This document shows, piece after piece, positions 1,568 through 26,148 of a stretch of DNA of 34,384 nucleotides. Position numbers and translations under genes: made by a program. Below the pieces are notes generated by a model. That model ran no database searches. It was not told the origin of the DNA and saw only the letters and a program-made list of their open reading frames with translations. Positions within the stretch are counted from its first letter, which is position 1. Each line of letters opens with the position of its first letter. This DNA comes from a virus, in IMG/VR virus record IMGVR_UViG_3300028831_000812, positions 1-34,384 of that record, one strand, 5' to 3'.

Positions 1568-1869
1568 GGCCGCCTCCACGCTTCGACAGAATTGGAGAGC
1601 CGGTCGATTGATGCGCGTAGGCCATCCAGCATTTGGCGTTGCGTTTCTAGGATTCCTTGAAACGTCGTCATCGTCATTTGGACTTGCGTAACTGTTGTCG
1701 CAACGCTACTGGTCATAGCCGTGAATTTGTCACCGAGGTCTTGATTGCGCTGCGTCAGTTTTTCGATGGTCTCGTTTTTTTCCTTGATGGTGGAGAACAG
1801 AAGATAGAGCAGGAGTGCGCCAAACCCGAGCTGCGGAATGAATGTCTTAAGGGCGTCGAGCGCGTCCAT
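1564..1869 (-). CDS. Single-span membrane protein with coiled coil
   Basis: 101 residues: an N-terminal membrane segment at about residues 12-27 (QLGFGALLLYLLFSTI), then a long heptad-rich helix (KEKNETIEKLTQRNQDL onward) to the C terminus. This topology (short N terminus, one span, long cytoplasmic or periplasmic coil) is common in phage lysis cassettes. It lies between the o-spanin and two further small genes, 24 nt after the o-spanin stop. It could be a pinholin-type or antiholin-like protein, or a second spanin-like rod. The structure is visible; the role is inferred. Confidence 0.6.
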   Translation of the reverse strand: MDALDALKTFIPQLGFGALLLYLLFSTIKEKNETIEKLTQRNQDLGDKFTAMTSSVATTVTQVQMTMTTFQGILETQRQMLDGLRASIDRLSNSVEAWRRP

Positions 1870-1893
1870 ATCTGTTACCCCACATTATGCCGG

Positions 1894-2199
1894 TTACGGT
1901 CCGCTGCACGCCTTTAGCGCCGCAAGCAGTTCGGCCTCGCGCGCGATTCGCATGAGCCGGCCAGCCTTCAAGAGTTGGACGCCAGCAAAAATATCGGTGA
2001 CACCGACGAGCGCTGCCGCGGTATCGGGATAATCAGGCTCTGGCCCGAGGTCTGGCTTACACGGCACGGGGATCGGCACGTTGACGATCTGTGTCTCGAC
2101 CTTCGGCGTTCCTGTTGTTGTGCACGCGGCGAGAAACGCCACGCCGATGCAGAGCACGATCAGGAGCGCAATCGCGTTGACGATTCGATCGCGTGTCAT
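1894..2199 (-). CDS. Rz1-like o-spanin lipoprotein
   Basis: 101 residues with a hydrophobic N-terminal signal (IVNAIALLIVLCIGVAFLAA) ending in a lipobox, LAAC. The mature protein would begin at a lipidated Cys and be anchored in the outer membrane. The following part is proline-rich (VNVPIPVPCKP), as in Rz1 proteins. With the inner-membrane spanin encoded directly upstream (ATGA overlap at 2196-2199) it should form the complex that fuses inner and outer membranes at the last step of lysis. Unlike lambda Rz1 it is not nested in the Rz gene but follows it. At 101 residues it is longer than the classical o-spanin. Confidence 0.75.
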   Translation of the reverse strand: MTRDRIVNAIALLIVLCIGVAFLAACTTTGTPKVETQIVNVPIPVPCKPDLGPEPDYPDTAAALVGVTDIFAGVQLLKAGRLMRIAREAELLAALKACSGP

Positions 2200-2570
2200 G
2201 GTGTATGCTCCCGTATGAGGGCCAGTGCGGCCGCGCAGTGATCGCCTGTCGGCTTCATGGCAAGGATGGCCTGAGCCGTCTTCTGGCTGGCCTGTGCTGC
2301 TTTGCGTGCGTCAGCTATGGCGCTATCGGCCCGCGCAGTGGCTGCTGCACTATCGGCCTGCATCTTCGCGATCTGCCCGTTCTGCACGTCGATTGAGCCG
2401 CGCAGCTTCGCCGTGTTCTGGGAACATACCGCCAGTTCGGTGCGGGCAAGATCGCGCTCGCCCTGCGCGTCCCCCAGCCGAATCCACATGACGGCGATTA
2501 GGATCAGTAACGCCGCTGTTGCCGCCCAGGCGATAATGGCGCCGAGCTTGCCCGTGAGAAACCCGATCAT
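2196..2570 (-). CDS. Rz-like i-spanin
   Basis: 124 residues: an N-terminal membrane segment (about residues 10-30, IIAWAATAALLILIAVMWI) followed by a long Ala/Gln-rich coiled coil through most of the protein. This is the layout of i-spanins, which sit in the inner membrane with a periplasmic helical rod. The start overlaps the endolysin stop (ATGA, 2567-2570) and the stop overlaps the o-spanin start. The order endolysin, i-spanin, o-spanin matches the family's usual arrangement. The family assignment rests on topology and position. Confidence 0.8.
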   Translation of the reverse strand: MIGFLTGKLGAIIAWAATAALLILIAVMWIRLGDAQGERDLARTELAVCSQNTAKLRGSIDVQNGQIAKMQADSAAATARADSAIADARKAAQASQKTAQAILAMKPTGDHCAAALALIREHTP

Positions 2571-3157
2571 GTGAACACCACCTTGGCGCGCGCGGTGATG
2601 GCCGCGCGTGCTTCTAGGCCGTCCATCGCGGGGCCGTTGATCGCCTTCGTGACGCCCGCCACGTTATCGGCGTCCGCCCATGCGTTGCAGCCTGCCGCAT
2701 TCCAGAAGGCCACTGCGGTCATGGCCGCACCCTCGGGCTGCGCCACAAGATCGGGCGTGGATTCCATCCCATAGCGACGATAGTTGTCCCGGCCGGTTAA
2801 CTGGATGAGGCCCTTACCTGCAAATTTCCATCCGTCGCCGGATGCCTCAGGGCCGTTGCCAAGCCGTCCACCGTAAGCGGCATTCGCCAGCTTCTCGGGA
2901 TTGTGGGCCAATTCCTGTGCGCGCGGTGCAAGTCGCGGCCAGACTTGACCGATACGCTCGGCCGAGTAATTGAGGTTTTCGACCAGCCGGTGAAAATGCA
3001 TGGATTCCCAATCTATCTGCGCCACGAAATGCGCGACACGAAGATGCGTCGTGATCCCGCCATGGGGCATCGCGGCGTTCAGAGGCGCGACGATGCTGCG
3101 CGCGATCGCCTGATCGGCGCCAGGTTCCAAGGCGAGAATTTGCGCGAGTGAAATCAT
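2567..3157 (-). CDS. Endolysin, glycoside hydrolase family 19 (chitinase-like)
   Basis: 196 residues starting MISLAQILAL at 3157, with GGGAG upstream; an ATG at 3190 would overlap the sulfatase gene and is less likely. GH19 features are clear: Glu51 in IDWESMHF and Glu60 in VENLNYSAERI are in the positions of the two catalytic acids. The family signature GKGLIQLTGRDNY lies around residues 113-125. GH19 endolysins cut the sugar backbone of peptidoglycan, causing host lysis. No signal peptide or membrane anchor is seen, so export should depend on a holin. It starts 2 nt after the sulfatase stop and overlaps the i-spanin gene, placing it at the head of the lysis cassette. Confidence 0.9.
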   Translation of the reverse strand: MISLAQILALEPGADQAIARSIVAPLNAAMPHGGITTHLRVAHFVAQIDWESMHFHRLVENLNYSAERIGQVWPRLAPRAQELAHNPEKLANAAYGGRLGNGPEASGDGWKFAGKGLIQLTGRDNYRRYGMESTPDLVAQPEGAAMTAVAFWNAAGCNAWADADNVAGVTKAINGPAMDGLEARAAITARAKVVFT

Positions 3158-3159
3158 GG

Positions 3160-4545
3160 CTACGGCTCCCAACAGGTTGATCCGGCGCACGTCTTGAGCG
3201 ACGCGAGCATTGAAGCCAGCGCGGCTATACGGGCCTGGTTCGCCGGCTTGTTGATTTTGTTCGCGAGTTGATCGGGGTCAGCGACGAGGTCATTGTATTC
3301 TCTGCCGCCGCTGTTCCATTCCGCGTAGCAATCAGTCAGGCCGAAGCCCGACGTGCTTTTCGTTATCACACCCACGGCATCACCTGATGCGACAAGCATG
3401 GCGCTTCGCCAATCGGCATGGACCGGATCAGCGAACAGCGGCCGCATGGACTTGCCGTCCAGCGCATAGCCAGGGGGCACGGTGATCCCGGCCATATCGC
3501 AAATCGTCGCCGCGAGGTCGAGATTGCTCACCATCTTGTTGCAGGTCACGCCCTCTGGGATGCCTGGGCCGCGGATGTAGAGCGGCACACGAAGCACCTT
3601 GAGATAGGTCGAATCCTTGCCCATCAAGCGAAGCTGGCCGTGCGCCAGTCCATTGTCGGACGTGACGATGATGTAGGTGTTGTTCAGCCGGTTCTTGTCG
3701 CGCAGCTTTTCGACAACGGCGTGCACCATGTCATCGGCCGATCTCACGCACTCGCATTGCTTACGCCAGAAAGAAACCTGCCCGTCGATGTCGTTCTGCG
3801 TCAGAAGCGGCAGCGCCAGCATTTCGGACGGCTTAAGCTGGTCCATCGGGTTCAGGTTGAAGCTGGGGTCACTGAAAAATGGGAACGGCTCGCTCGCGTA
3901 GGCGCCGGCGTAAGTCACAGACGGCACAGCTGGCGTGTGTGGCGTCACCGGCGAAAGGTTCAGGTAGAACCGCTGGCCCGGCACCATGCCGTCGAGAAAT
4001 TCGAGTGCCTGGCGCGTCATCGTGTCGATGATGTATTCGCCGGTGTAGGTATGCGATGCGCCCGTCGCCCCGCCGTCGTTGGATTCGTAGAACGTGCAGC
4101 CGACGTAATTGGCGTTCGGCACGTCATCTATGTCGCAGCGCCAGAAATCGTGACCTGGGAAAACATGCGTAGGAGCGATCTTCTCGTCGCCGTTAATTTT
4201 CTTGCCGGAATGCCCCACGCGCCGGCCACTGTTCTTAGCCCACACCGGCAGCACGTTGCCTTCGATCAGGCTGAACGCCTGGTAGCCGCCATCAGGTCCG
4301 TTGTTATCGATGACGCCGGTGTTGTGGTACGATCTGCCGGCATCAATCGACGCCCGCGATACCGCGCAGAGCGACTTTTCCACGAAGGTATTTGGAAACC
4401 GCATTCCGCGGTCGATGACATTCGCCTTAATCCACGGCATAAATGAATTGCCGTGACTGTCCAAGAGCACATTGCCCTGGCTGTCCAGCATGTTGCCGGT
4501 CATATCGTCGAGAAGGATCAGGACAACATCGTATTGATCGCTCAT
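3160..4545 (-). CDS. Sulfatase-family (alkaline phosphatase superfamily) protein
   Basis: 461 residues, the usual size for a type I sulfatase. Metal-binding and active-site features in order: Asp13-Asp14 in LILLDDM; the formylglycine motif region CAVSRASIDAGR at Cys60; a GHSGKKIN motif (His112, Lys115); TPHTP (His203); SDNG (Asp297, Asn298); Lys310; and RVPLYIRGPGI near 319-329. Known sulfatases hydrolyse sulfate esters after the Cys is oxidised to formylglycine. Here the core is C-x-V-S-R rather than the usual C-x-P-S-R or C-x-A-S-R. The GxHR His near residue 304 also appears to be Leu (GQLRL). No signal peptide is visible. The gene has a good ribosome site (GGGGAG) and lies between the tail-fibre partner and the endolysin, so a virion-bound enzyme acting on surface sulfated sugars is an attractive inference. 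A phosphodiesterase activity is an alternative. Confidence 0.85.
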   Translation of the reverse strand: MSDQYDVVLILLDDMTGNMLDSQGNVLLDSHGNSFMPWIKANVIDRGMRFPNTFVEKSLCAVSRASIDAGRSYHNTGVIDNNGPDGGYQAFSLIEGNVLPVWAKNSGRRVGHSGKKINGDEKIAPTHVFPGHDFWRCDIDDVPNANYVGCTFYESNDGGATGASHTYTGEYIIDTMTRQALEFLDGMVPGQRFYLNLSPVTPHTPAVPSVTYAGAYASEPFPFFSDPSFNLNPMDQLKPSEMLALPLLTQNDIDGQVSFWRKQCECVRSADDMVHAVVEKLRDKNRLNNTYIIVTSDNGLAHGQLRLMGKDSTYLKVLRVPLYIRGPGIPEGVTCNKMVSNLDLAATICDMAGITVPPGYALDGKSMRPLFADPVHADWRSAMLVASGDAVGVITKSTSGFGLTDCYAEWNSGGREYNDLVADPDQLANKINKPANQARIAALASMLASLKTCAGSTCWEP

Positions 4546-4666
4546 GGGTTCTCCCCGCGCGCACTTTCGCCACCGGCTCGGTCAAATTGCGACCTGCCCT
4601 ACTGATGCTCTACTGATTTGAAAGATGCTGTTGCGCGCGGCCCGCTTTAGTTCAGCGCGCTGGTGC

Positions 4667-5122
4667 TCAGTGGACTATAGGTTTGGCGCCGAAAAGTTTT
4701 GCCGCGGCCTCGGTAGCAAGTTCAACCTCGTCGTCATCGAGCAACCCAGGGACGCCGTGGATGAACCAACCATTCAGGCGAAGCAACTCGCCGCCAGAGA
4801 AGCCCACTGGTTTCATCGTCTCGTAGGCGAACGGCGTAATTGGAACGTTCACCTTGACCTCGAGTAGTTTGGTCTGGCGCACGAGATCGTTGTTGAATTT
4901 CTGGGCCTCACGCAATGAGGCGTCGATGAACGGCCCGCATTGTTGAACCGCTAGAGCGACGGCGATATTGTCTTCCGCCTTTGGAAAGACGAAATCCCGC
5001 GCCTTTATAAGCGCATCGCGCGCGCCCAAGAGCCGCCCGATCGTGACCGCTACCGATCCTGTCGGCTTCTCGGTTTCCGCAGCCTCACTGGTTGCGGCAT
5101 TGCTGTTTTTCCCTTTGGCCAT
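4667..5122 (-). CDS. Tail-fibre-associated protein, unknown function
   Basis: 151 residues starting MAKGKNSNAATSEAAE at 5122. The start is fixed by AGGAGAG 6 nt upstream; the longer frame to 5221 overlaps the fibre gene without support. The N terminus is low-complexity and polar. The remainder is helical with a hydrophobic C-terminal half containing GFSGGELLRLNGWF, followed by an acidic patch (GLLDDDEVELA). No enzyme motif is seen. It lies 16 nt after the giant tail-tip/fibre gene, the position of tail-fibre assembly chaperones or fibre accessory proteins, which is the most likely type of role. Confidence 0.6.
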   Translation of the reverse strand: MAKGKNSNAATSEAAETEKPTGSVAVTIGRLLGARDALIKARDFVFPKAEDNIAVALAVQQCGPFIDASLREAQKFNNDLVRQTKLLEVKVNVPITPFAYETMKPVGFSGGELLRLNGWFIHGVPGLLDDDEVELATEAAAKLFGAKPIVH

Positions 5123-5138
5123 TTGCTTCTCTCCTAGG

Positions 5139-8100
5139 TTATGGGATTTCCCAAACGTCGAATGTCGAACCGCGCTTGATGGTCGATTTGGTGCCGAACG
5201 ATGCGTTCTGTGCAAAAGCAACCGATATGGTACCGGCGACTCCGACCAAAAGCTCTCCCCAGATTATCGCCACTCCGGGACCAGCGGTCGTCGAACCGAA
5301 CGCAGTATCCAAAGCTGTTTTCCTAGAACCCGTGAATGTTCCTGAGTCCAAGAATACCTGTACATTATAGATGATGTTTGTAGCGGTCAGTGCCGATGGT
5401 GTCGGTTGACCGGCACTAATATCGAACTTGTACCCGCCCGATGCGTTTGCATCGAAATGGAGCACTGCCCTAAACCCATAGCGAACGCCAGCAAGGATAG
5501 CCTGTGTTAGACCCGTGACATCCGCCATTGTCGTCGAACTTGTCACGTCGAAATCTGCGTTTACTCGGTTGGGGAATATCCCAAGTATCGTGCGCGCCTG
5601 AGTTGGATTGAGTGCCGTCGGGGTGGCCGGATCAGCCGCGTCGGCAGCGCCGCCAATAAATCGCGACGCCGCGATAGTCGCCATCTTGGCGAGCGTGACT
5701 TTGTTCGCCCCGATAGTGGCTGCGAATGATCCCGTTCCTGATCCGGTTACATCACCCGTCAGCGTGATTGTCTGATCGCCAGTGTTGTTGCCAGAACTTG
5801 TTCCGCCGAGGGTCGCATTGGCGGTGAGCGTCAGGTTTTTTCCGGCTAGCGTGAACGTCGATCCGCCGCCGGTGAGGTCGAGTGTCAGCGCTCTATTGGC
5901 ATCGAGAACGGGGATGATGTTCAGATAATTGGCGCCACTCGCCAGAATTTTTAAGGTGCCGTTGAAAAAGATATTTCCGAGAAATGTCTGGTCCCCAACA
6001 TCAGAAATCGCCGCAAGGGTTGTATTGGCATTTTGTTTAATCGGAACGTTGATGTCTTTGTTTGCCGTTAATGCTGTTCCGTCTGTCCCGATCTTCAGAA
6101 GCCAAAAGAACGAGCTATTTGGATCATCGAAGCGGAACGTCCCGTCCGAAGGAACGATAGCTTTACCGGTGAAGGTTTGGTCTGCGCTGAATGTCTGAGC
6201 GCTACCAAGACATGCAATTGTATCACTCGTATTAGGCAGCGTGTAGGTTTTGAGTGAGGTCGCTGGCCCAGAAAACTGCATGAAGGCGTTATTCGTACCG
6301 CCGTTCGCACCGGCAAGGATGCTTGTCCCCACCGCTGCCGATGCGCTGAGGTCGATTGAGCCGAAGCCGAGCGAACCGCCAGACCGCCGTAAAATTTGCC
6401 CGTCGGTCGCTGTCGAAATCGCTGCCGGTGCGCCGGTCCCAGATGCTTTTCCGAGGACGGCCGGACCCGTCATGTCCGCGAGTTTGCCCAGCACCACTGT
6501 TCCAGCGGTGATGGCCGCACCGTCAAAGGACGTTGCGCCGTCCGTAAGCGCAAGGATCAGGTTTCCGTGCGTGTCCCAAACTTTGATCCCATAATCGCCG
6601 GAAGCGAACTTTCCAACTCGAACGCGAAGCGTCGTCCCATCTGCCTGAAAAACGTCGAGGCGTTTATTGGAGCTGTCGATAACTATTTCACCGCCACTCG
6701 ATGAAATCTTGGTCGTGTCGATGCCAAAGCCGCCAATGGCACCTGAGGTCGCGGTGATCGCACCACTAATCGTAGCTCCGGTCGCGAACAGCAATCCCGA
6801 TTCGTAAAGACGGAAAGTCGCTATCCCCCGATTTGCGAATGACGCACCAGCCCAAAACCGAACATCGTCGGCACCAGTGACGGTCGAGGCGAGGCCGAAG
6901 GAATTGGCGGCATCGCGGATATAATCGGCGCCGATCTTGAACCCGCTGATGAGCGTGCCCGAACTGTCCGAACGGAAAACAAGCGTGCCGTCGCTGTCCC
7001 AGATCTTGAAACCATAATCGCCGCTACCGAATTTTCCGAACTGCGCGCGATCAAACGTGCCGTCATTTGCCGTGATGCGTGCATTTGGCCCGTCGATGAA
7101 AAGGCGGCCTGCTTCACCAAGATGGAGCGTTTTGGTCCAGGTGTCGCCGTCTAGGAGCTTTCCCCCCGCAAGGGTGTTGTCGGTAACATCGGCGTTGACG
7201 ACTTGAGCCGTGCTGCCCAGCGAGGAAGAACTAAAAGCGCTCGCATTGCCCGAATTGTCGATGGAGCGAAGCCAATAGTAATTCGAGGCCCCAGACGCTA
7301 AACCGCCACGTGGGTGGCTTTGCCTCTTGCCGATGCGCGCAGGAACCGTGGCAATAAGATAGTTGGTAGCATCCGCAACCGGATCAGGCGCTACATTGGT
7401 CGGCGTTTCCCAAATTTCGATCAGCGTTAGGTCTGCATCGCTTGAATTCAGCCAGCGCAGCGAAACATGATGGAGCTTGCCAGTAATGGAAACCCAAGTC
7501 GGAGCCGATGGAGCCGTTGCATCATAAGTAGATGTGTATGGCCCGGCTACGGAACTGAATGCCGATTTGTTCCCAAGCCGGTCGATTGCTCGCACCTTGG
7601 CGGAATAGGCTGTGTTCGATTTCGTCGGGAATGTAAAGGATGTGCTGTCACTATCGACACGACCGCGGTGCTCAAAGCTACCGCTTCCCTCCTGGACCAT
7701 AATTCCGTAGGAACCGAGATCAGCCTCGGAGTTCGCATTCCAGGTGAATGTGACAAAAACGACTGGAAGACCCGTTTTTGGATCAGCACCTCCCGCTGAG
7801 GTAAAGGGTGAGCCGCCGAAGGTTGGAGTTGCCGGCGCTGTGGCATCCAGATCGTCGACAGTGACGAGAGCAGGTCCATACGGACCCGCCGCCGCTGTGA
7901 ACGCGCTGACATTTCCGGATTTGTCGATGGCGCGAAGCCGATAGTATTTCGACGAACCAGTCGCCATCGCACCGCGCGTATATGCGCCTTTGGCAACCTT
8001 GTGACCTTGAAGAACGTTGATGCGGTAAGCAATGTCAGCGACCGGATCGGGCGATGCGTTTGTTGGCGTCTCCCAAATCTCGATCTTGTCGAGATCATCA

Positions 8101-11100
8101 TCACTCGGATTTGTCCATGTCAGAGCGACAGACGTGGCACCGGACGTACCGGCAAGAGCTGTAGGTGCCGCCGGCGCAACAGAATCGTAGGTCGAGGTAT
8201 AGGGCCCGGCCGTGGCGCTCCAATCCGATTCGTTGCCGAGCCTGTCCACGGCCATTACGCGCCACGAATAGGCGACGTTGGCCTCCACAGTGGTCTGCGC
8301 CCAAGTCCGGCCCTTGCGCGTCTTGGCGACGTGCTCCCAAACGCCGTCGATCAGGATTTCGGCAACGTAGGCGCCGATATCGCTTTCGGAATTCGCATTC
8401 CAAGTGAATTTCTCAGTGATGACCGGAAGGCCAGTCTTCATATCGATCGAAACCGACGAGGTGATCGGCGCGCCGCCGAATGTCGGAGCCGCAGGCGGAT
8501 CGGTTTCGAGATCGCCAGGCACCACCTCTGCCGCGGTCGACGTACTAACCGGAAGCCAATCGGTCCAGTTTGTTACTGTATCGCGAAACCCATTCGCACG
8601 ATATTTTGCGCGAACCTCATAAACCGTCCCCGGCATGATGTTGTGGCCGAGCGTCTCCGTACCGTCGTCAAAATCAGAACGTCCGCGCGCGACATTGCTG
8701 TCATCGGCCGCAAGCCTGACCTGATAGCGGACGTGATCGACGTTAAGGATGGGATAACCGTCACCATCGACAAGCGCCCAAGTCAGATGAAGGGTTGCGC
8801 GTTGACGCCCACCGGCACCGGTGATTGTCACGGCTTCGACTGCGAAGCCGATCATGTCTTGCGGCGGCGGCCATTTTCCTGTCGGCGTGTATTCGTAAGC
8901 GGTTACGGTCGAAATATCCTCGAGCCCGAGGCCAAAGATATTGACCGACACGAGTTTTACGTAGATCAGCTTCCCAATGTATTCGATCGGCAACGGAAAT
9001 TTGAAGATCGTACCATCGAGGCGGGCGAATTGGGTTCCCGAGGAATGAGCCGCGGCCTTGGTGCCGTATTGTCCGCGCCACAGATTGCTCAGGACGAAGT
9101 GGTGCGAGTTCGCATAGTCGTAGGTGATGTCCACCGCAGCGCCGGCGTCGGCCGCATTGAACGTGTAGAGGCCTTCTCCATCCTCGGTGTATTCGCTTGG
9201 TCCAGGGTGCGATCCGACAAATGTGAGGGCAGCGCCTCCATGGAAGCTGACTCCACCATCAGAATCGAAGGTGCTGTCATGGTTGACCGCAATTTCGTAT
9301 GGCGCCACCGCTGGAATATTGTGAGGCTCGGCCGAGGCCGTCGCGATCGAGAGCGTCGCGGTTTCGTAGGATAGTAGCTCGCCATCGACATAGCAGAGCG
9401 TGCGTCCGTTCTCGGCATCGTCGGCCGAGCCCGAACGCACCCGACCGTGGCTCTGCGTAAGATCGACGGAAAGCGTGTGACTCGTGTCAGGGTTGGCGCC
9501 GCCAAACGACGCCAGCGAACCAGTGATGACCCCCATACGGCAGGTGTTGGTGATGTTGTCGACATGTTCGTAAACATCGTCGTCGACCGAAAGATGGACC
9601 TGGCATCCACCCCAATTCGGATCGTAATCGCCGCCGCCGCCGCAGACCCCAATCCATATCTCTGGCGAACCCACCAAAAGGCTTGACGGCTCGAAAATGA
9701 TCGGCGTGTTGACGGCACTGGCTGGGGCCCGTGAATTGTGTGCCGTGCCGCTGCTTTTTTCCTTCTCGTATCGGACCGCTGTACCCGTGCCAAGGCGCAG
9801 TTCGTCTATATCGACGGTCAAATCGCCCTGATCATCTTCCTCGATCGACACGATGCGAAACGAGGCCTGCGCGTATTCCAGCAGCGGGACCGCGACAGTG
9901 ACGTTGTCCATTGGATCATATGGGCAAAAGGTGACCGGCAGTTTGAACGTGGCCGAATTACGGTTGTAGAGGCCTTTCTGCAAAATGAGATGCGCGATGA
10001 TGGCGCCGACCTCTGTGCCGATGATCTCATGCGCGGTGACTGTACTGTCGATGCGCCTGGTCAGCGCATTCTCGATGGCGCTTTGGTCCCATGCTGGGAT
10101 CGGCAAATAAGAGAAATTCCCGTCCTCGGACGTGATCTCAAGGTTGACGACGTTCTTTGCTTCAGCCGGATCGGTGCGCGACACCGAAAATGGCGCATCA
10201 CCACTCTGCTCCAGAAAGTCGTCTGCGCTCAAGTCGACGACTGCGGCGAGATCTGGAAGATACGTGACACCATTTGCGGTGATCGTTTCGTCGCCGTACG
10301 GAATGAATTTCAGTTTCTCGCCTGACCAAACCGCCGCGCAGTTGCAGAGTTGCAGCCAACGATCAAGGATAGATGATGCGGTTTCCTGGCTGGTAAGCGC
10401 CACGCCCATACCGATGCCAAGGGCGCGGAGATAGGTTTGCAGGCTGGCGTCGCCCGTTGTGGTCGCGGCGTCCGTGGAAAGCAGCGTGTCGGTATCGAAG
10501 GAGTTGGCGAAGCCCGGCACGCCGTATTGTTCACTCGACAGAAAATCCTGGATGACTAGCGCCATATCGGCTGTGGCTATGCCACTAGGCGCACACCACG
10601 ACGCTTCGAACCCGGTCGTACGGACGCAGAGAACATTATGCTGGGGCAGCGCCGCTGACGGCCCGAGATCGTAATTCTCGATCACGATGATGGCCGTTCC
10701 AGGATAGCCGAAGGCATCTTCCGGGTGAGCGTGCTCTAGGTACGACCAGGGCGCCTGCTCAGGATATGTGCCAGGGATAAGCGTCATCCCGAGCTCGGCG
10801 AGCGTTGACGTGCCCTGGTCGACAAAAACCTTCGGCACAGAGTCAACGACGCCTTCACACAACATCAATTCGACCGAAGCGGTGTAATCGGCAATCTCGG
10901 CGCCTTTCCCACCGCCCTTGCCGCCGGCACTGACACTCTTGTTGTGCTTTGTAAAATCGCCGTACCAGCCGACGTTCGGCGCGATCTTCACCGTCCCCCA
11001 AACTACGGGGATCGGCAGCGTATTGACCGACGTCTGAATTTGCAGGCCCGTGTACGCTGGCGTCTTATTGGTCGGCAGGTTTGCTCCAAATAGAACGCTC

Positions 11101-11102
11101 AT
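5139..11102 (-). CDS. Giant tail tip / central fibre protein (gpJ-like, GTA g15-like)
   Basis: 1987 residues. The N-terminal ~450 residues resemble tail-tip hub proteins of the gpJ/GTA 'megatron' class. They start MSVLFGANLP and contain a hub-type segment near residue 390-440 with CPYDPMDNVTVAVPL and an acidic 'EEDDQGDLTVDIDELRLG' stretch. Residues ~840-1300 are fibronectin type III-like domains arranged as a duplicated module. After ~1330 come fibre repeats, including the paired phrases GKFGSGDYGFKIWDSDG (~1358) and GKFASGDYGIKVWDTHGN (~1500). Next is a collar-like stretch (GDQTITLTGDVTGSGTGSF, ~1771) and a C-terminal beta-rich domain that probably binds the receptor. Its start overlaps the NlpC/P60 stop (ATGA, 11099-11102). 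The protein should join the tail tube end to the host-recognition fibre in a single polypeptide. Confidence 0.88.
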   Translation of the reverse strand: MSVLFGANLPTNKTPAYTGLQIQTSVNTLPIPVVWGTVKIAPNVGWYGDFTKHNKSVSAGGKGGGKGAEIADYTASVELMLCEGVVDSVPKVFVDQGTSTLAELGMTLIPGTYPEQAPWSYLEHAHPEDAFGYPGTAIIVIENYDLGPSAALPQHNVLCVRTTGFEASWCAPSGIATADMALVIQDFLSSEQYGVPGFANSFDTDTLLSTDAATTTGDASLQTYLRALGIGMGVALTSQETASSILDRWLQLCNCAAVWSGEKLKFIPYGDETITANGVTYLPDLAAVVDLSADDFLEQSGDAPFSVSRTDPAEAKNVVNLEITSEDGNFSYLPIPAWDQSAIENALTRRIDSTVTAHEIIGTEVGAIIAHLILQKGLYNRNSATFKLPVTFCPYDPMDNVTVAVPLLEYAQASFRIVSIEEDDQGDLTVDIDELRLGTGTAVRYEKEKSSGTAHNSRAPASAVNTPIIFEPSSLLVGSPEIWIGVCGGGGDYDPNWGGCQVHLSVDDDVYEHVDNITNTCRMGVITGSLASFGGANPDTSHTLSVDLTQSHGRVRSGSADDAENGRTLCYVDGELLSYETATLSIATASAEPHNIPAVAPYEIAVNHDSTFDSDGGVSFHGGAALTFVGSHPGPSEYTEDGEGLYTFNAADAGAAVDITYDYANSHHFVLSNLWRGQYGTKAAAHSSGTQFARLDGTIFKFPLPIEYIGKLIYVKLVSVNIFGLGLEDISTVTAYEYTPTGKWPPPQDMIGFAVEAVTITGAGGRQRATLHLTWALVDGDGYPILNVDHVRYQVRLAADDSNVARGRSDFDDGTETLGHNIMPGTVYEVRAKYRANGFRDTVTNWTDWLPVSTSTAAEVVPGDLETDPPAAPTFGGAPITSSVSIDMKTGLPVITEKFTWNANSESDIGAYVAEILIDGVWEHVAKTRKGRTWAQTTVEANVAYSWRVMAVDRLGNESDWSATAGPYTSTYDSVAPAAPTALAGTSGATSVALTWTNPSDDDLDKIEIWETPTNASPDPVADIAYRINVLQGHKVAKGAYTRGAMATGSSKYYRLRAIDKSGNVSAFTAAAGPYGPALVTVDDLDATAPATPTFGGSPFTSAGGADPKTGLPVVFVTFTWNANSEADLGSYGIMVQEGSGSFEHRGRVDSDSTSFTFPTKSNTAYSAKVRAIDRLGNKSAFSSVAGPYTSTYDATAPSAPTWVSITGKLHHVSLRWLNSSDADLTLIEIWETPTNVAPDPVADATNYLIATVPARIGKRQSHPRGGLASGASNYYWLRSIDNSGNASAFSSSSLGSTAQVVNADVTDNTLAGGKLLDGDTWTKTLHLGEAGRLFIDGPNARITANDGTFDRAQFGKFGSGDYGFKIWDSDGTLVFRSDSSGTLISGFKIGADYIRDAANSFGLASTVTGADDVRFWAGASFANRGIATFRLYESGLLFATGATISGAITATSGAIGGFGIDTTKISSSGGEIVIDSSNKRLDVFQADGTTLRVRVGKFASGDYGIKVWDTHGNLILALTDGATSFDGAAITAGTVVLGKLADMTGPAVLGKASGTGAPAAISTATDGQILRRSGGSLGFGSIDLSASAAVGTSILAGANGGTNNAFMQFSGPATSLKTYTLPNTSDTIACLGSAQTFSADQTFTGKAIVPSDGTFRFDDPNSSFFWLLKIGTDGTALTANKDINVPIKQNANTTLAAISDVGDQTFLGNIFFNGTLKILASGANYLNIIPVLDANRALTLDLTGGGSTFTLAGKNLTLTANATLGGTSSGNNTGDQTITLTGDVTGSGTGSFAATIGANKVTLAKMATIAASRFIGGAADAADPATPTALNPTQARTILGIFPNRVNADFDVTSSTTMADVTGLTQAILAGVRYGFRAVLHFDANASGGYKFDISAGQPTPSALTATNIIYNVQVFLDSGTFTGSRKTALDTAFGSTTAGPGVAIIWGELLVGVAGTISVAFAQNASFGTKSTIKRGSTFDVWEIP
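7215..8560 (-). repeat. Tandem duplication of a fibronectin-III pair within the tail-tip gene
   Basis: Two consecutive modules of about 660-670 bp (about 220 residues) are related at both protein and DNA level. Each contains VDRLGN / IDRLGN, then AGPYTSTYD, then IEIWETPTN with PDPVAD, and a closing YYxLRxIDxSGN. The DNA near 7521-7594 matches 8181-8252, and 7231-7285 matches 7901-7955. This is an internal segmental duplication of the stalk domains and may lengthen the fibre. Confidence 0.8.
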
Positions 11103-24535: not shown

Positions 24536-25222
24536 GGGTACTCCTTCGAGCGTTGTGATGCCGGCAGCACCGGCAAGGGTCGCCGCAATTCCCGCGGTCA
24601 GGGATTTCGAGACATCACCAGCGACAAGGCCGTTGATGAAGGACGAAAACTCGTCAAGACTTTGCCCGATCATCGCCGCCTTATCGATGACGGCGTCGTC
24701 CTTGATAATGGATTCGATGGATTGTCGAAGCGCTTCTTGGCCCTTCCAGAATTTGTCCCAGAGGTTCTGAAGCTGGAGTTGCTCGTCGAACTTCTCCGCG
24801 AAGGTCTCGGCGCAGATCGCACCGTTGGTCGCAATTCCGTATTTCGCGAACATCTCGTCGAGCGCTTTGCCGACCTCGCTCCCTTTCCAGTCGCCCGGAA
24901 TTTTATCGGACAGATCAAGGGCCTTCGCGCGTGTCTTGATATGCGTGCGGATGGCGGCGTGTGAATTGTTCTTGCCGCGGCCAACGGCGTGAATGGCGTT
25001 TTCAAGGTCGGCCGCATCCTTGATCGGATACGATCCGTCCTTCATGGCTTCCTTGCCAGCCATGTCGCGGCGATCCTGCGCGCTGTACTTCGCCTTCCAG
25101 AACGCCTCATCGGCGTCATCGCGCTTCATGATAGTCACTGTTGCGTGTTCCTGACACGGACGGTCGACGGCGGCTATCTTGCCGATCGTCAGGGCGGAGA
25201 GGATACGTTTGAAACCGCTCAT
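23765..25222 (-). CDS. Capsid assembly protein with scaffold region
   Basis: 485 residues. The N-terminal part contains a conserved head-gene segment at about residues 65-110 (YPIKDAADLENAIHAVGRG and HAAIRTHIKTRAKAL) seen in many phage head-assembly proteins. Residues ~230-485 are highly charged, helical and low in hydrophobic residues (DDDFKKMQAELAIEKM, AKAAEEKAVLDFAKRADD), as in scaffolding proteins. The start overlaps the protease stop by 4 nt (ATGA at 25219-25222). A strong internal ribosome site precedes Met230, so the scaffold half is probably also made separately. Confidence 0.75.
   Translation of the reverse strand: MSGFKRILSALTIGKIAAVDRPCQEHATVTIMKRDDADEAFWKAKYSAQDRRDMAGKEAMKDGSYPIKDAADLENAIHAVGRGKNNSHAAIRTHIKTRAKALDLSDKIPGDWKGSEVGKALDEMFAKYGIATNGAICAETFAEKFDEQLQLQNLWDKFWKGQEALRQSIESIIKDDAVIDKAAMIGQSLDEFSSFINGLVAGDVSKSLTAGIAATLAGAAGITTLEGVPMSDTLKKALGLPATATEAEVSAAVTKRDDDFKKMQAELAIEKMSDKHKAFANNKGAKLPEGGRDRFAAMTPAERDKHIEDNPVTGDGGDDENTEKALKAGDAFKSISGQIITKRAAGVMYDVVKAQDEEIRKSRDAIAKAAEEKAVLDFAKRADDLGFGKDFGPTLRKAYGGDVTAQLEVEKRIAALNKQVETGQLFSNFGKSSPQEGSAESELIAKAAEIKKAEPKLSDQQAYTRAYKDPANMAIVKRMRAEASA
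24540..24546 (-). promoter_or_regulatory. Internal Shine-Dalgarno site for the nested scaffold
   Basis: AAGGAGT on the mRNA strand ends 4 nt before the ATG at 24535, inside the long capsid-assembly gene. It is one of the strongest ribosome sites in the window, which argues for regular use. Confidence 0.7.
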
Positions 25223-26148
25223 GCTTCGATCTCCTTGCAGCCTTCGAGGCGCTTGCCCTGAATGGAAAAGCCGGTGTATTCGCCACTACGGAATTTCGCG
25301 AGCACGGCGGGCGGCGGCTTGTAAGCGATCATCAGTCCGGTCTTGTTGGTCTGAATGTCCATCGCTTTCGCGATCTCCGTCGTCAGGGGGAATGCAAAGA
25401 TGTACGTCCCCACATCGGGGTCATTGTGCATCTCGTTCCCGGCGCGGCTGTTCTCCATGAAGTCGGCCGCAGCCTTCAGCATCGCGTCTTCCGGAATGTG
25501 CTCTGGCACGCGTTCACCGGCGTGCTCGCCTTGATAGTCAACGTTCAAATCGAAATAATCTTCGCCGTTCACTTTGCAGACCACGGCCCAACCGAAGACC
25601 AAGCCGAGCGATTCATCGACCTTAGCGATGCTGTAGCGTTTTAGGGCGGTCGAGACTGGTTCCAGATCGTTAAACCGAACCTCGGCGGTGGTTTGGCCGT
25701 CGAGCCACTGTGCCGCTAAGCGATGATGCCCGTCGGCGATATAATTTTTGTTATTATGACGCACTACGACGGGGAATTTATTACCCTTGATCCCGTTGGT
25801 GCGCATCGCCTCGACCTTTTTCGGATCGACGCGGTCTTGCATGGCATGAAGCTCGTCAAGCTTTACTGTGGTCTTCGGCAGCGTTTCCGAATTCGTCAGC
25901 GAGCCGAAGAAACGAGGTACCTGATCCGGCCGCAGCGAACCCAGCGCGTTTACGTCGTACAGAAACGGTGTCTTCGCGGTGTCGGCGTCGTGCGGTTTTA
26001 GTTCGCGCTTGGCCACGACGGCGGTTTCACCGATACATGCCTTGAACGACTTTGCCCTACCACGCTTCGCGTTGCCCAGCGCCGTCGGAACATGAACCGA
26101 CGAGGTGGTCATGTCTTTCATGACAGTAGCAAAGTTTACGGCGGTCAT
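25219..26148 (-). CDS. XkdF/S78_2-type prohead protease fused to a ParB-like domain
   Basis: 309 residues with two parts. Residues ~90-165 form a ParB/sulfiredoxin-like domain: a start motif (ELHAMQDRVDPKKVEAM), then FPVVVRHNNKNYIADGHHRLAA with the hallmark DGHHR at about 138-142. Residues ~175-300 match phage XkdF-type proteases: ESLGLVFGWAVVC, a conserved YQGEHAGERVPEHI segment, ENSRAGNEMHNDPDVG with a likely catalytic His near 240, and EYTGFSIQGK with a likely Ser near 294. The protease should process scaffold or head proteins during maturation. The stop overlaps the scaffold gene start. The ribosome site is weak, so the exact start is uncertain. Confidence 0.8.
   Translation of the reverse strand: MTAVNFATVMKDMTTSSVHVPTALGNAKRGRAKSFKACIGETAVVAKRELKPHDADTAKTPFLYDVNALGSLRPDQVPRFFGSLTNSETLPKTTVKLDELHAMQDRVDPKKVEAMRTNGIKGNKFPVVVRHNNKNYIADGHHRLAAQWLDGQTTAEVRFNDLEPVSTALKRYSIAKVDESLGLVFGWAVVCKVNGEDYFDLNVDYQGEHAGERVPEHIPEDAMLKAAADFMENSRAGNEMHNDPDVGTYIFAFPLTTEIAKAMDIQTNKTGLMIAYKPPPAVLAKFRSGEYTGFSIQGKRLEGCKEIEA

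What the first reader, a model, noticed from the sequence alone, without database searches (positions are those of the whole stretch)
3160..4545. Sulfatase-family enzyme in the tail-fibre/lysis interval of a phage
A full-length sulfatase-like protein stands between the tail-fibre partner and the endolysin. The alkaline phosphatase-superfamily metal and sulfate residues are largely present. Phage tail enzymes that break surface polysaccharides are usually lyases, hydrolases or esterases; a sulfatase would remove sulfate groups from host or capsule sugars, opening a receptor or removing it after infection. The formylglycine motif has Val instead of Pro/Ala in C-x-P-S-R and the GxHR His is Leu, so substrate or even activation could differ.
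Basis: partly seen in the sequence, partly recalled or inferred. Interest (0 to 1): 0.7.

Follow-up and report, generated by a model that had tools for sequence, protein, structure and literature searches.

The report
Phage sulfatase between tail and lysis
This phage carries, between its tail and cell-bursting genes, an enzyme of the family that strips sulfate groups from sugars, without the usual export signal and with an unusual activation motif, which is rare among known phages and might help it get through or let go of its host's sugar coat, though activity is unproven.

Summary
The gene is real. The ORF at 3160-4545 (minus strand, 461 aa) is a full-length sulfatase-family protein (Pfam Sulfatase E 1.3e-29). 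It was modelled with high confidence (pLDDT 90.4) and falls among S1 carbohydrate sulfatases of known structure (Z up to 43). It stands on the late strand of a tailed phage, after the 1987-aa tail protein and a 151-aa orphan, and 2 nt before the endolysin start. Metal, nucleophile and sulfate-binding positions are all kept. (1) There is no room for a signal peptide, whereas the related proteins I looked at carry one. (2) The formylglycine region departs at two sites, C-A-V-S-R and Leu68 to Asp, the latter unique among 85 relatives. (3) C-x-V-S-R is not necessarily dead: 25 of 30 fetched Nocardioides relatives keep C-C-V-S-R. Three other viral contigs hold relatives at different genome positions, so the gene was probably captured more than once. 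A late, non-exported sulfatase acting outside the cell, on the virion or after lysis, is the best reading. Virion presence, formylglycine and substrate are untested. New variant of a known kind.

The parts
3160..4545 (-). sulfatase-family gene, 461 aa, no signal peptide
   Evidence: in-frame stop 12 codons upstream of the ATG
4354..4368 (-). codons for C60-A-V-S-R64, the formylglycine motif with Val for Pro
4342..4344 (-). codon for Asp68, where 72 of 85 relatives have Leu and none has Asp
4504..4509 (-). D13 D14, first metal-ligand pair
   Evidence: D in 83 of 85, the other 2 gapped
3652..3657 (-). D297 N298, second metal-ligand pair
   Evidence: D in 85 of 85, N in 79 of 85
3631..3633 (-). 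Leu305, at the family's GxHR histidine
   Evidence: H in 77 of 85; also lost in viral L096
4667..5122 (-). 151-aa protein of unknown kind between tail gene and sulfatase
   Evidence: no Pfam family, no phage relative, single-sequence model poor, pLDDT 44.6
5139..11102 (-). 1987-aa tail (tip/host-specificity) protein
   Evidence: Phage-tail_3 and Rcc01698_C; phrog_1101 tail; 41% to Brevundimonas phage tip attachment protein
2567..3157 (-). GH19-type endolysin, ATG 2 nt after the sulfatase stop
   Evidence: phrog_181 endolysin E 1.2e-66 (from the GTG start); junction; 44.5% to a Pseudomonas phage lytic protein
2196..2570 (-). probable inner-membrane spanin (membrane segment plus coiled coil)
   Evidence: by eye; no Pfam match over its cut-off

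Best explanation
It is a bacterial carbohydrate sulfatase captured by a tailed phage and put under late (tail-lysis) expression. Shown: sulfatase fold, complete catalytic set, late-strand position 2 nt ahead of the endolysin, no export signal. Inferred: the protein builds up in the cytoplasm, where a host formylglycine-generating enzyme oxidises Cys60 (no FGE is on this contig), and it leaves the cell only in the virion or when the cell bursts. Outside, it removes sulfate esters from host surface or matrix polysaccharide, either loosening the coat for the next adsorption or keeping progeny from sticking to debris.
For: Family and fold. All metal, nucleophile and sulfate-binding positions kept on the longest branch of the tree, 1.9 changes per column. 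Close coupling to the endolysin, and no sigma-70-like promoter in 1800-5600. No signal peptide possible, while the related proteins inspected by eye have hydrophobic leaders. C-x-V-S-R is kept in 25 of 30 Nocardioides loci, and the three genomes that held its first three members encode FGE-family proteins, so Val at +2 is compatible with long-term retention. In viral contig L095 a relative lies directly behind an 861-aa gene on the same strand, in a run that also holds a gene with virion-structural PHROG hits.
Against: Pro->Leu at the same motif position in human iduronate-2-sulfatase (P86L) is pathogenic (PMC10185571, passages). Asp68 is unique. The window record has no FGE and the host is unknown. 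No virion-docking domain was found. In viral L096 a 34% relative sits beside a DNA methyltransferase and a primase, not beside tail genes. The 121-nt gap before the sulfatase could hide a separate promoter of a non-sigma-70 type.
Confidence: 0.45

Rival explanations
1. Catalytically silent relative: with Pro62->Val and Leu68->Asp the cysteine is not converted, and the protein survives as a glycan-binding tail or lysis accessory, or is cargo on its way out.
For: Two departures in the maturation region, one unique among 85 relatives; longest branch; pathogenic Pro->Leu precedent; loss of the GxHR histidine.
Against: Every metal, nucleophile and sulfate-binding position is intact; the ORF is intact and fold confidence is high; C-C-V-S-R is stable in Nocardioides.
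Confidence: 0.22
2. Intracellular hydrolase: without an export signal it acts in the cytoplasm on a phosphodiester, phosphonate or sulfated metabolite, for example a signal molecule of a host defence.
For: No signal peptide; phosphonate monoester hydrolases lie in the same fold list, Z about 36; the 34% viral relative L096 sits with DNA-metabolism genes.
Against: Its sequence kin and best structural rows are mostly carbohydrate sulfatases; the late tail-lysis position is late for early counter-defence; L096 itself has a leader.
Confidence: 0.13
3. Metabolic or lysogenic-conversion cargo (moron) that lets an infected or lysogenic host use or alter sulfated substrates.
For: Four viral copies do not form one clade and lie at different genome places, as expected of cargo; a sulfatase is mentioned among viral auxiliary genes of deep groundwater (PMC10029852, passage).
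Against: Without a leader it could not reach extracellular substrate before lysis; tight junction with the endolysin.
Confidence: 0.15

Closest known systems
Bacterial GNS-like sulfatases of Pfam PF00884 with CCPSR, GKYLN and (most of them) a C-terminal Cys pair (e.g. Azohydromonas L016, Ca. Fraserbacteria L013, Fischerella L003); the label GNS-like is mine, from recall
   Same: about 29-36% identity, full length, same catalytic residues, GKxxN
   Different: They have leaders, CCPSR, usually Leu at position 68 and GxHR; the phage protein lacks these
S1 carbohydrate sulfatases of known structure: BT4656 (5g2v), BT3177 S1_11 (7p24), S1_25 module (6hr5)
   Same: Same fold over about 360-410 residues, Z 39-43, rmsd 2.1-2.2
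   Different: 23% identity; Pro at the +2 position in 5g2v, with Ser as nucleophile in the alignment shown; substrate pocket not compared
Sulfatases in viral contigs L096, L095, L012 (IMG/VR)
   Same: 29-34% identity; L096 shares the ending LKTCAGxxCW and also lacks the GxHR histidine
   Different: All three have leaders and CCPSR; different neighbours; L095 has an extra C-terminal stretch that looks Ig-like by eye
Nocardioides C-C-V-S-R sulfatase clade
   Same: Val at the Pro position of the formylglycine motif
   Different: 28% identity for L090; leader in L090 by eye; hydrophobic residue at position 68
phrog_19870
   Same: Matches over positions 2-437 of 459, E 1.2e-28
   Different: Listed as unknown function; its members and their contexts are not available here

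Membership tests
Pfam Sulfatase PF00884 (homology family) | profile score above the curated cut-off over the domain | tested here: met
   103.9 bits against a cut-off of 25, positions 2-301 of 301
Pfam Sulfatase PF00884 (homology family) | alkaline-phosphatase-superfamily sulfatase fold | tested here: met
   6hr5 Z 43.0, rmsd 2.1 over 363; 5g2v Z 39.7, rmsd 2.2 over 409
formylglycine sulfatases (type I) | Asp-Asp and Asp-Asn/Gln/His metal ligands | tested here: met
   D13 D14 D297 N298
formylglycine sulfatases (type I) | Cys or Ser nucleophile with Arg at +4 | tested here: met
   C60 and R64
formylglycine sulfatases (type I) | Pro (Ala tolerated, recalled) at +2 of the maturation motif | tested here: not met
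   Val62; 82 of 85 relatives have Pro, 3 have Val, all Nocardioides; 25 of 30 Nocardioides loci have Val
formylglycine sulfatases (type I) | cysteine actually converted to formylglycine | not testable with these tools
   needs mass spectrometry; no FGE on the window record
GNS-like subgroup found here | GKxxN motif and C-terminal Cys pair | tested here: met
   G114 K115 N118, C453, C458
GNS-like subgroup found here | GxHR histidine | tested here: not met
   Leu305; 77 of 85 relatives have His
numbered SulfAtlas S1 subfamily | assignment by SulfAtlas profiles | not testable with these tools
   no SulfAtlas library on hand; no number is claimed
virion tail enzyme | presence in purified virions | not testable with these tools
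   no isolate, no proteome

The most novel reading that the evidence does not exclude
A late phage sulfatase stripped of its export signal, matured in the cytoplasm through a non-canonical C-x-V-S-R site and delivered by the virion or by lysis, so that a phage edits sulfate, not sugar bonds, on its host's coat; and C-x-V-S-R is an overlooked natural class of formylglycine site.
Probability: 0.25. Interest if true: 0.7.

Novelty: new variant of a known kind. Interest (0 to 1): 0.5.

Why it matters
Phage surface enzymes are usually said to cut or de-acetylate polysaccharide (recalled). A desulfating phage enzyme would add a chemistry to that list and point to sulfated coats as phage barriers or receptors. 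Independently, the C-x-V-S-R clade gives a direct test of how strict formylglycine-generating enzymes are in nature.

Tried and rejected
Close viral relatives: single-protein scans of viral contigs with the sulfatase, the hub protein and the tail protein found none. An alignment scan and pattern scans gave L012 (and again as L094, same contig), L095 and L096 only. L093 and L097 showed no sulfatase match by tblastn and were dropped. Six of the seven stretches from the C-terminal pattern were not relatives, the seventh being L096. These scans need exact degenerate matches, so they are a lower bound.

Annotated phages: 9 of 50,697 records matched and none covered 80% of the query. Seven were unannotated faecal records and two were Klebsiella prophage records; in the one I opened the gene lies beside a sulfatase maturase at the record end, which may be host DNA. 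With L012 as query 12 records matched, 3 over 80%, all faecal; those 3 at about 24% identity. In the viral fold library 8 models passed E 0.001, all from viruses I recall as giant viruses.

Host: capsid, terminase and endolysin kin are spread over many hosts; 0 of 398 Pseudomonadota genomes held the capsid at E 1e-30; no tRNA, no repeats. No prophage copy was identified among the sulfatase loci: 4 of 398 Pseudomonadota genomes rang at E 1e-20, and I did not annotate their flanks, nor those of the 80 genome-contig loci.

The 151-aa neighbour gave no relative and a poor model. Active-site geometry could not be measured because I found no model coordinates in the box. Rows dropped: 6 of 91 relatives lack the motif column in the counts (these 91 include L012 but were gathered before L095 and L096); the tree kept the window plus 84 relatives with over 95 bits and over 380 aa; the fold alignment used 39 relatives. 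The first ORF taken for L002 was in a wrong frame; it was replaced in alignments A1 and A2, but the table still shows it.

Papers: searches brought up no paper that I could recognise, from listings and passages, as describing a phage-encoded sulfatase of this kind or C-x-V-S-R in sulfatases. Passages only were read in PMC9853417, PMC13288928, PMC12724379, PMC10185571, PMC10232697, PMC6359870, PMC10029852, PMC8746622, PMC6273756, PMC6698867, PMC11318856 and PMC3458804; the rest were seen as listings.

Full report
What is there. The window is a 34,384-base virus record. On its minus strand run a terminase, portal, head proteins and major capsid protein, a 982-aa gene without a family match in the tape-measure position (inference), a baseplate-hub protein, an NlpC/P60-like protein and a 1987-aa tail protein. 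Then come a 151-aa orphan, the sulfatase gene, a GH19-type endolysin (phrog_181) and small spanin-like genes (by eye).

The protein. Residues 6-354 match Pfam Sulfatase at 1.3e-29 and the C-terminal part matches SGSH_C at 4.2e-12. NCBIfam equivalogs match only far below their cut-offs, for instance choline-sulfatase 74 bits against 433, so no function-level name follows. An AlphaFold model on 40 sequences has pLDDT 90.4 and pTM 0.93. VIA-align puts S1 sulfatases first: 6hr5 Z 43.0, 5g2v 39.7, 7p24 39.1.

Residues. Against 85 relatives with the motif column filled (of 91 aligned), the phage protein keeps D13, D14, C60, R64, K115, H203, D297, N298 and K310. It departs at position 62 (Val; 82 Pro, 3 Val), 68 (Asp; 72 Leu, none Asp) and 305 (Leu; 77 His). 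The roles of these positions (metal, nucleophile, sulfate binding) are assigned by recall of arylsulfatase A. His305 is not a catalytic residue there as I recall it, and viral L096 lacks it too, so its loss speaks to substrate more than to chemistry. Position 62 lies in the recognition motif of the maturing enzyme; FGE recognition is described as CXPXR or LCTPSR in passages of PMC6698867 and PMC6273756, and Pro->Leu there causes disease in humans (PMC10185571). Since the six-residue tag LCTPSR is enough, position 68 lies outside the minimal motif.

A natural C-x-V-S-R clade. The three Val-bearing relatives were all Nocardioides. A search of 78 genomes of that genus gave 34 with a match at E 1e-60. 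Of the 30 loci fetched, 25 have C-C-V-S-R and 5 C-C-P-S-R, most at about 50-55% identity to the query L090. The genomes of the first three members encode FGE-family proteins, though not necessarily for this target. So Val at +2 is retained over long divergence and does not by itself prove inactivity. Activity in that clade is not known to me.

Export. An in-frame stop lies 12 codons upstream of the ATG, and the codons between encode no hydrophobic stretch. The protein begins almost directly with the first strand of the fold. By eye, the bacterial relatives whose starts I looked at and all three viral relatives begin with hydrophobic leaders; no predictor was run. The phage version therefore most likely stays in the cytoplasm until lysis or packaging.

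Expression. The endolysin ATG is 2 nt after the sulfatase stop, with a GGGAG inside the sulfatase end as a possible ribosome site; a GTG start overlapping the sulfatase is also open. No sigma-70-like promoter was found between 1800 and 5600. Terminator-like matches exceed the shuffles (8 against a mean of 3.4, both strands); on the minus strand one lies upstream at 5237-5221, inside the tail gene, one inside the sulfatase at 3895-3883 and one at 2007-1993, all weak. Late co-expression is an inference from position.

Other viruses. Relatives in IMG/VR: L096 (34%; beside a DNA methyltransferase and primase), L095 (31%; behind an 861-aa gene in a run with virion-structural hits) and L012 (29%; converging on tail-hub and fibre-like genes). 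None shares the window's position. The four viral rows need four label changes on the tree, as many as shuffled labels do, so nothing shows one viral lineage; deep forks are poorly supported and the window row has the longest branch, 1.9. For the same reason, repeated capture is likely but not proven.

Verdict. Sulfatase-family membership is secure as homology and fold. A functioning formylglycine sulfatase is the likeliest reading but not shown, since the strict maturation motif is not met. Virion location and target are open. The finding is uncommon (no relative covering 80% of it among 50,697 annotated phage records) but not without kin: phrog_19870 and three viral contigs exist.

Noticed in passing
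L080, L090, L091 and L114-L143: A Nocardioides sulfatase clade has C-C-V-S-R in place of C-C-P-S-R in 25 of 30 fetched loci: a possible natural non-canonical formylglycine site.
   Followed up: partly
window 25219-26148: 309-aa head-region protein matches both a ParB-like nuclease and the XkdF-type phage protease in Pfam, and a methyltransferase-named PHROG: perhaps a fused capsid protease.
   Followed up: no
window 4667-5122: 151-aa orphan between tail protein and sulfatase, without relatives in 50,697 phage records even at E 1.
   Followed up: partly
L095 1742-3478: Viral sulfatase with a leader and a C-terminal extension that looks Ig-like by eye, which Pfam did not name.
   Followed up: no
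window 1894-2570: Two small genes after the endolysin look like a spanin pair: a membrane/coiled-coil protein and a lipobox-bearing small protein (by eye).
   Followed up: no
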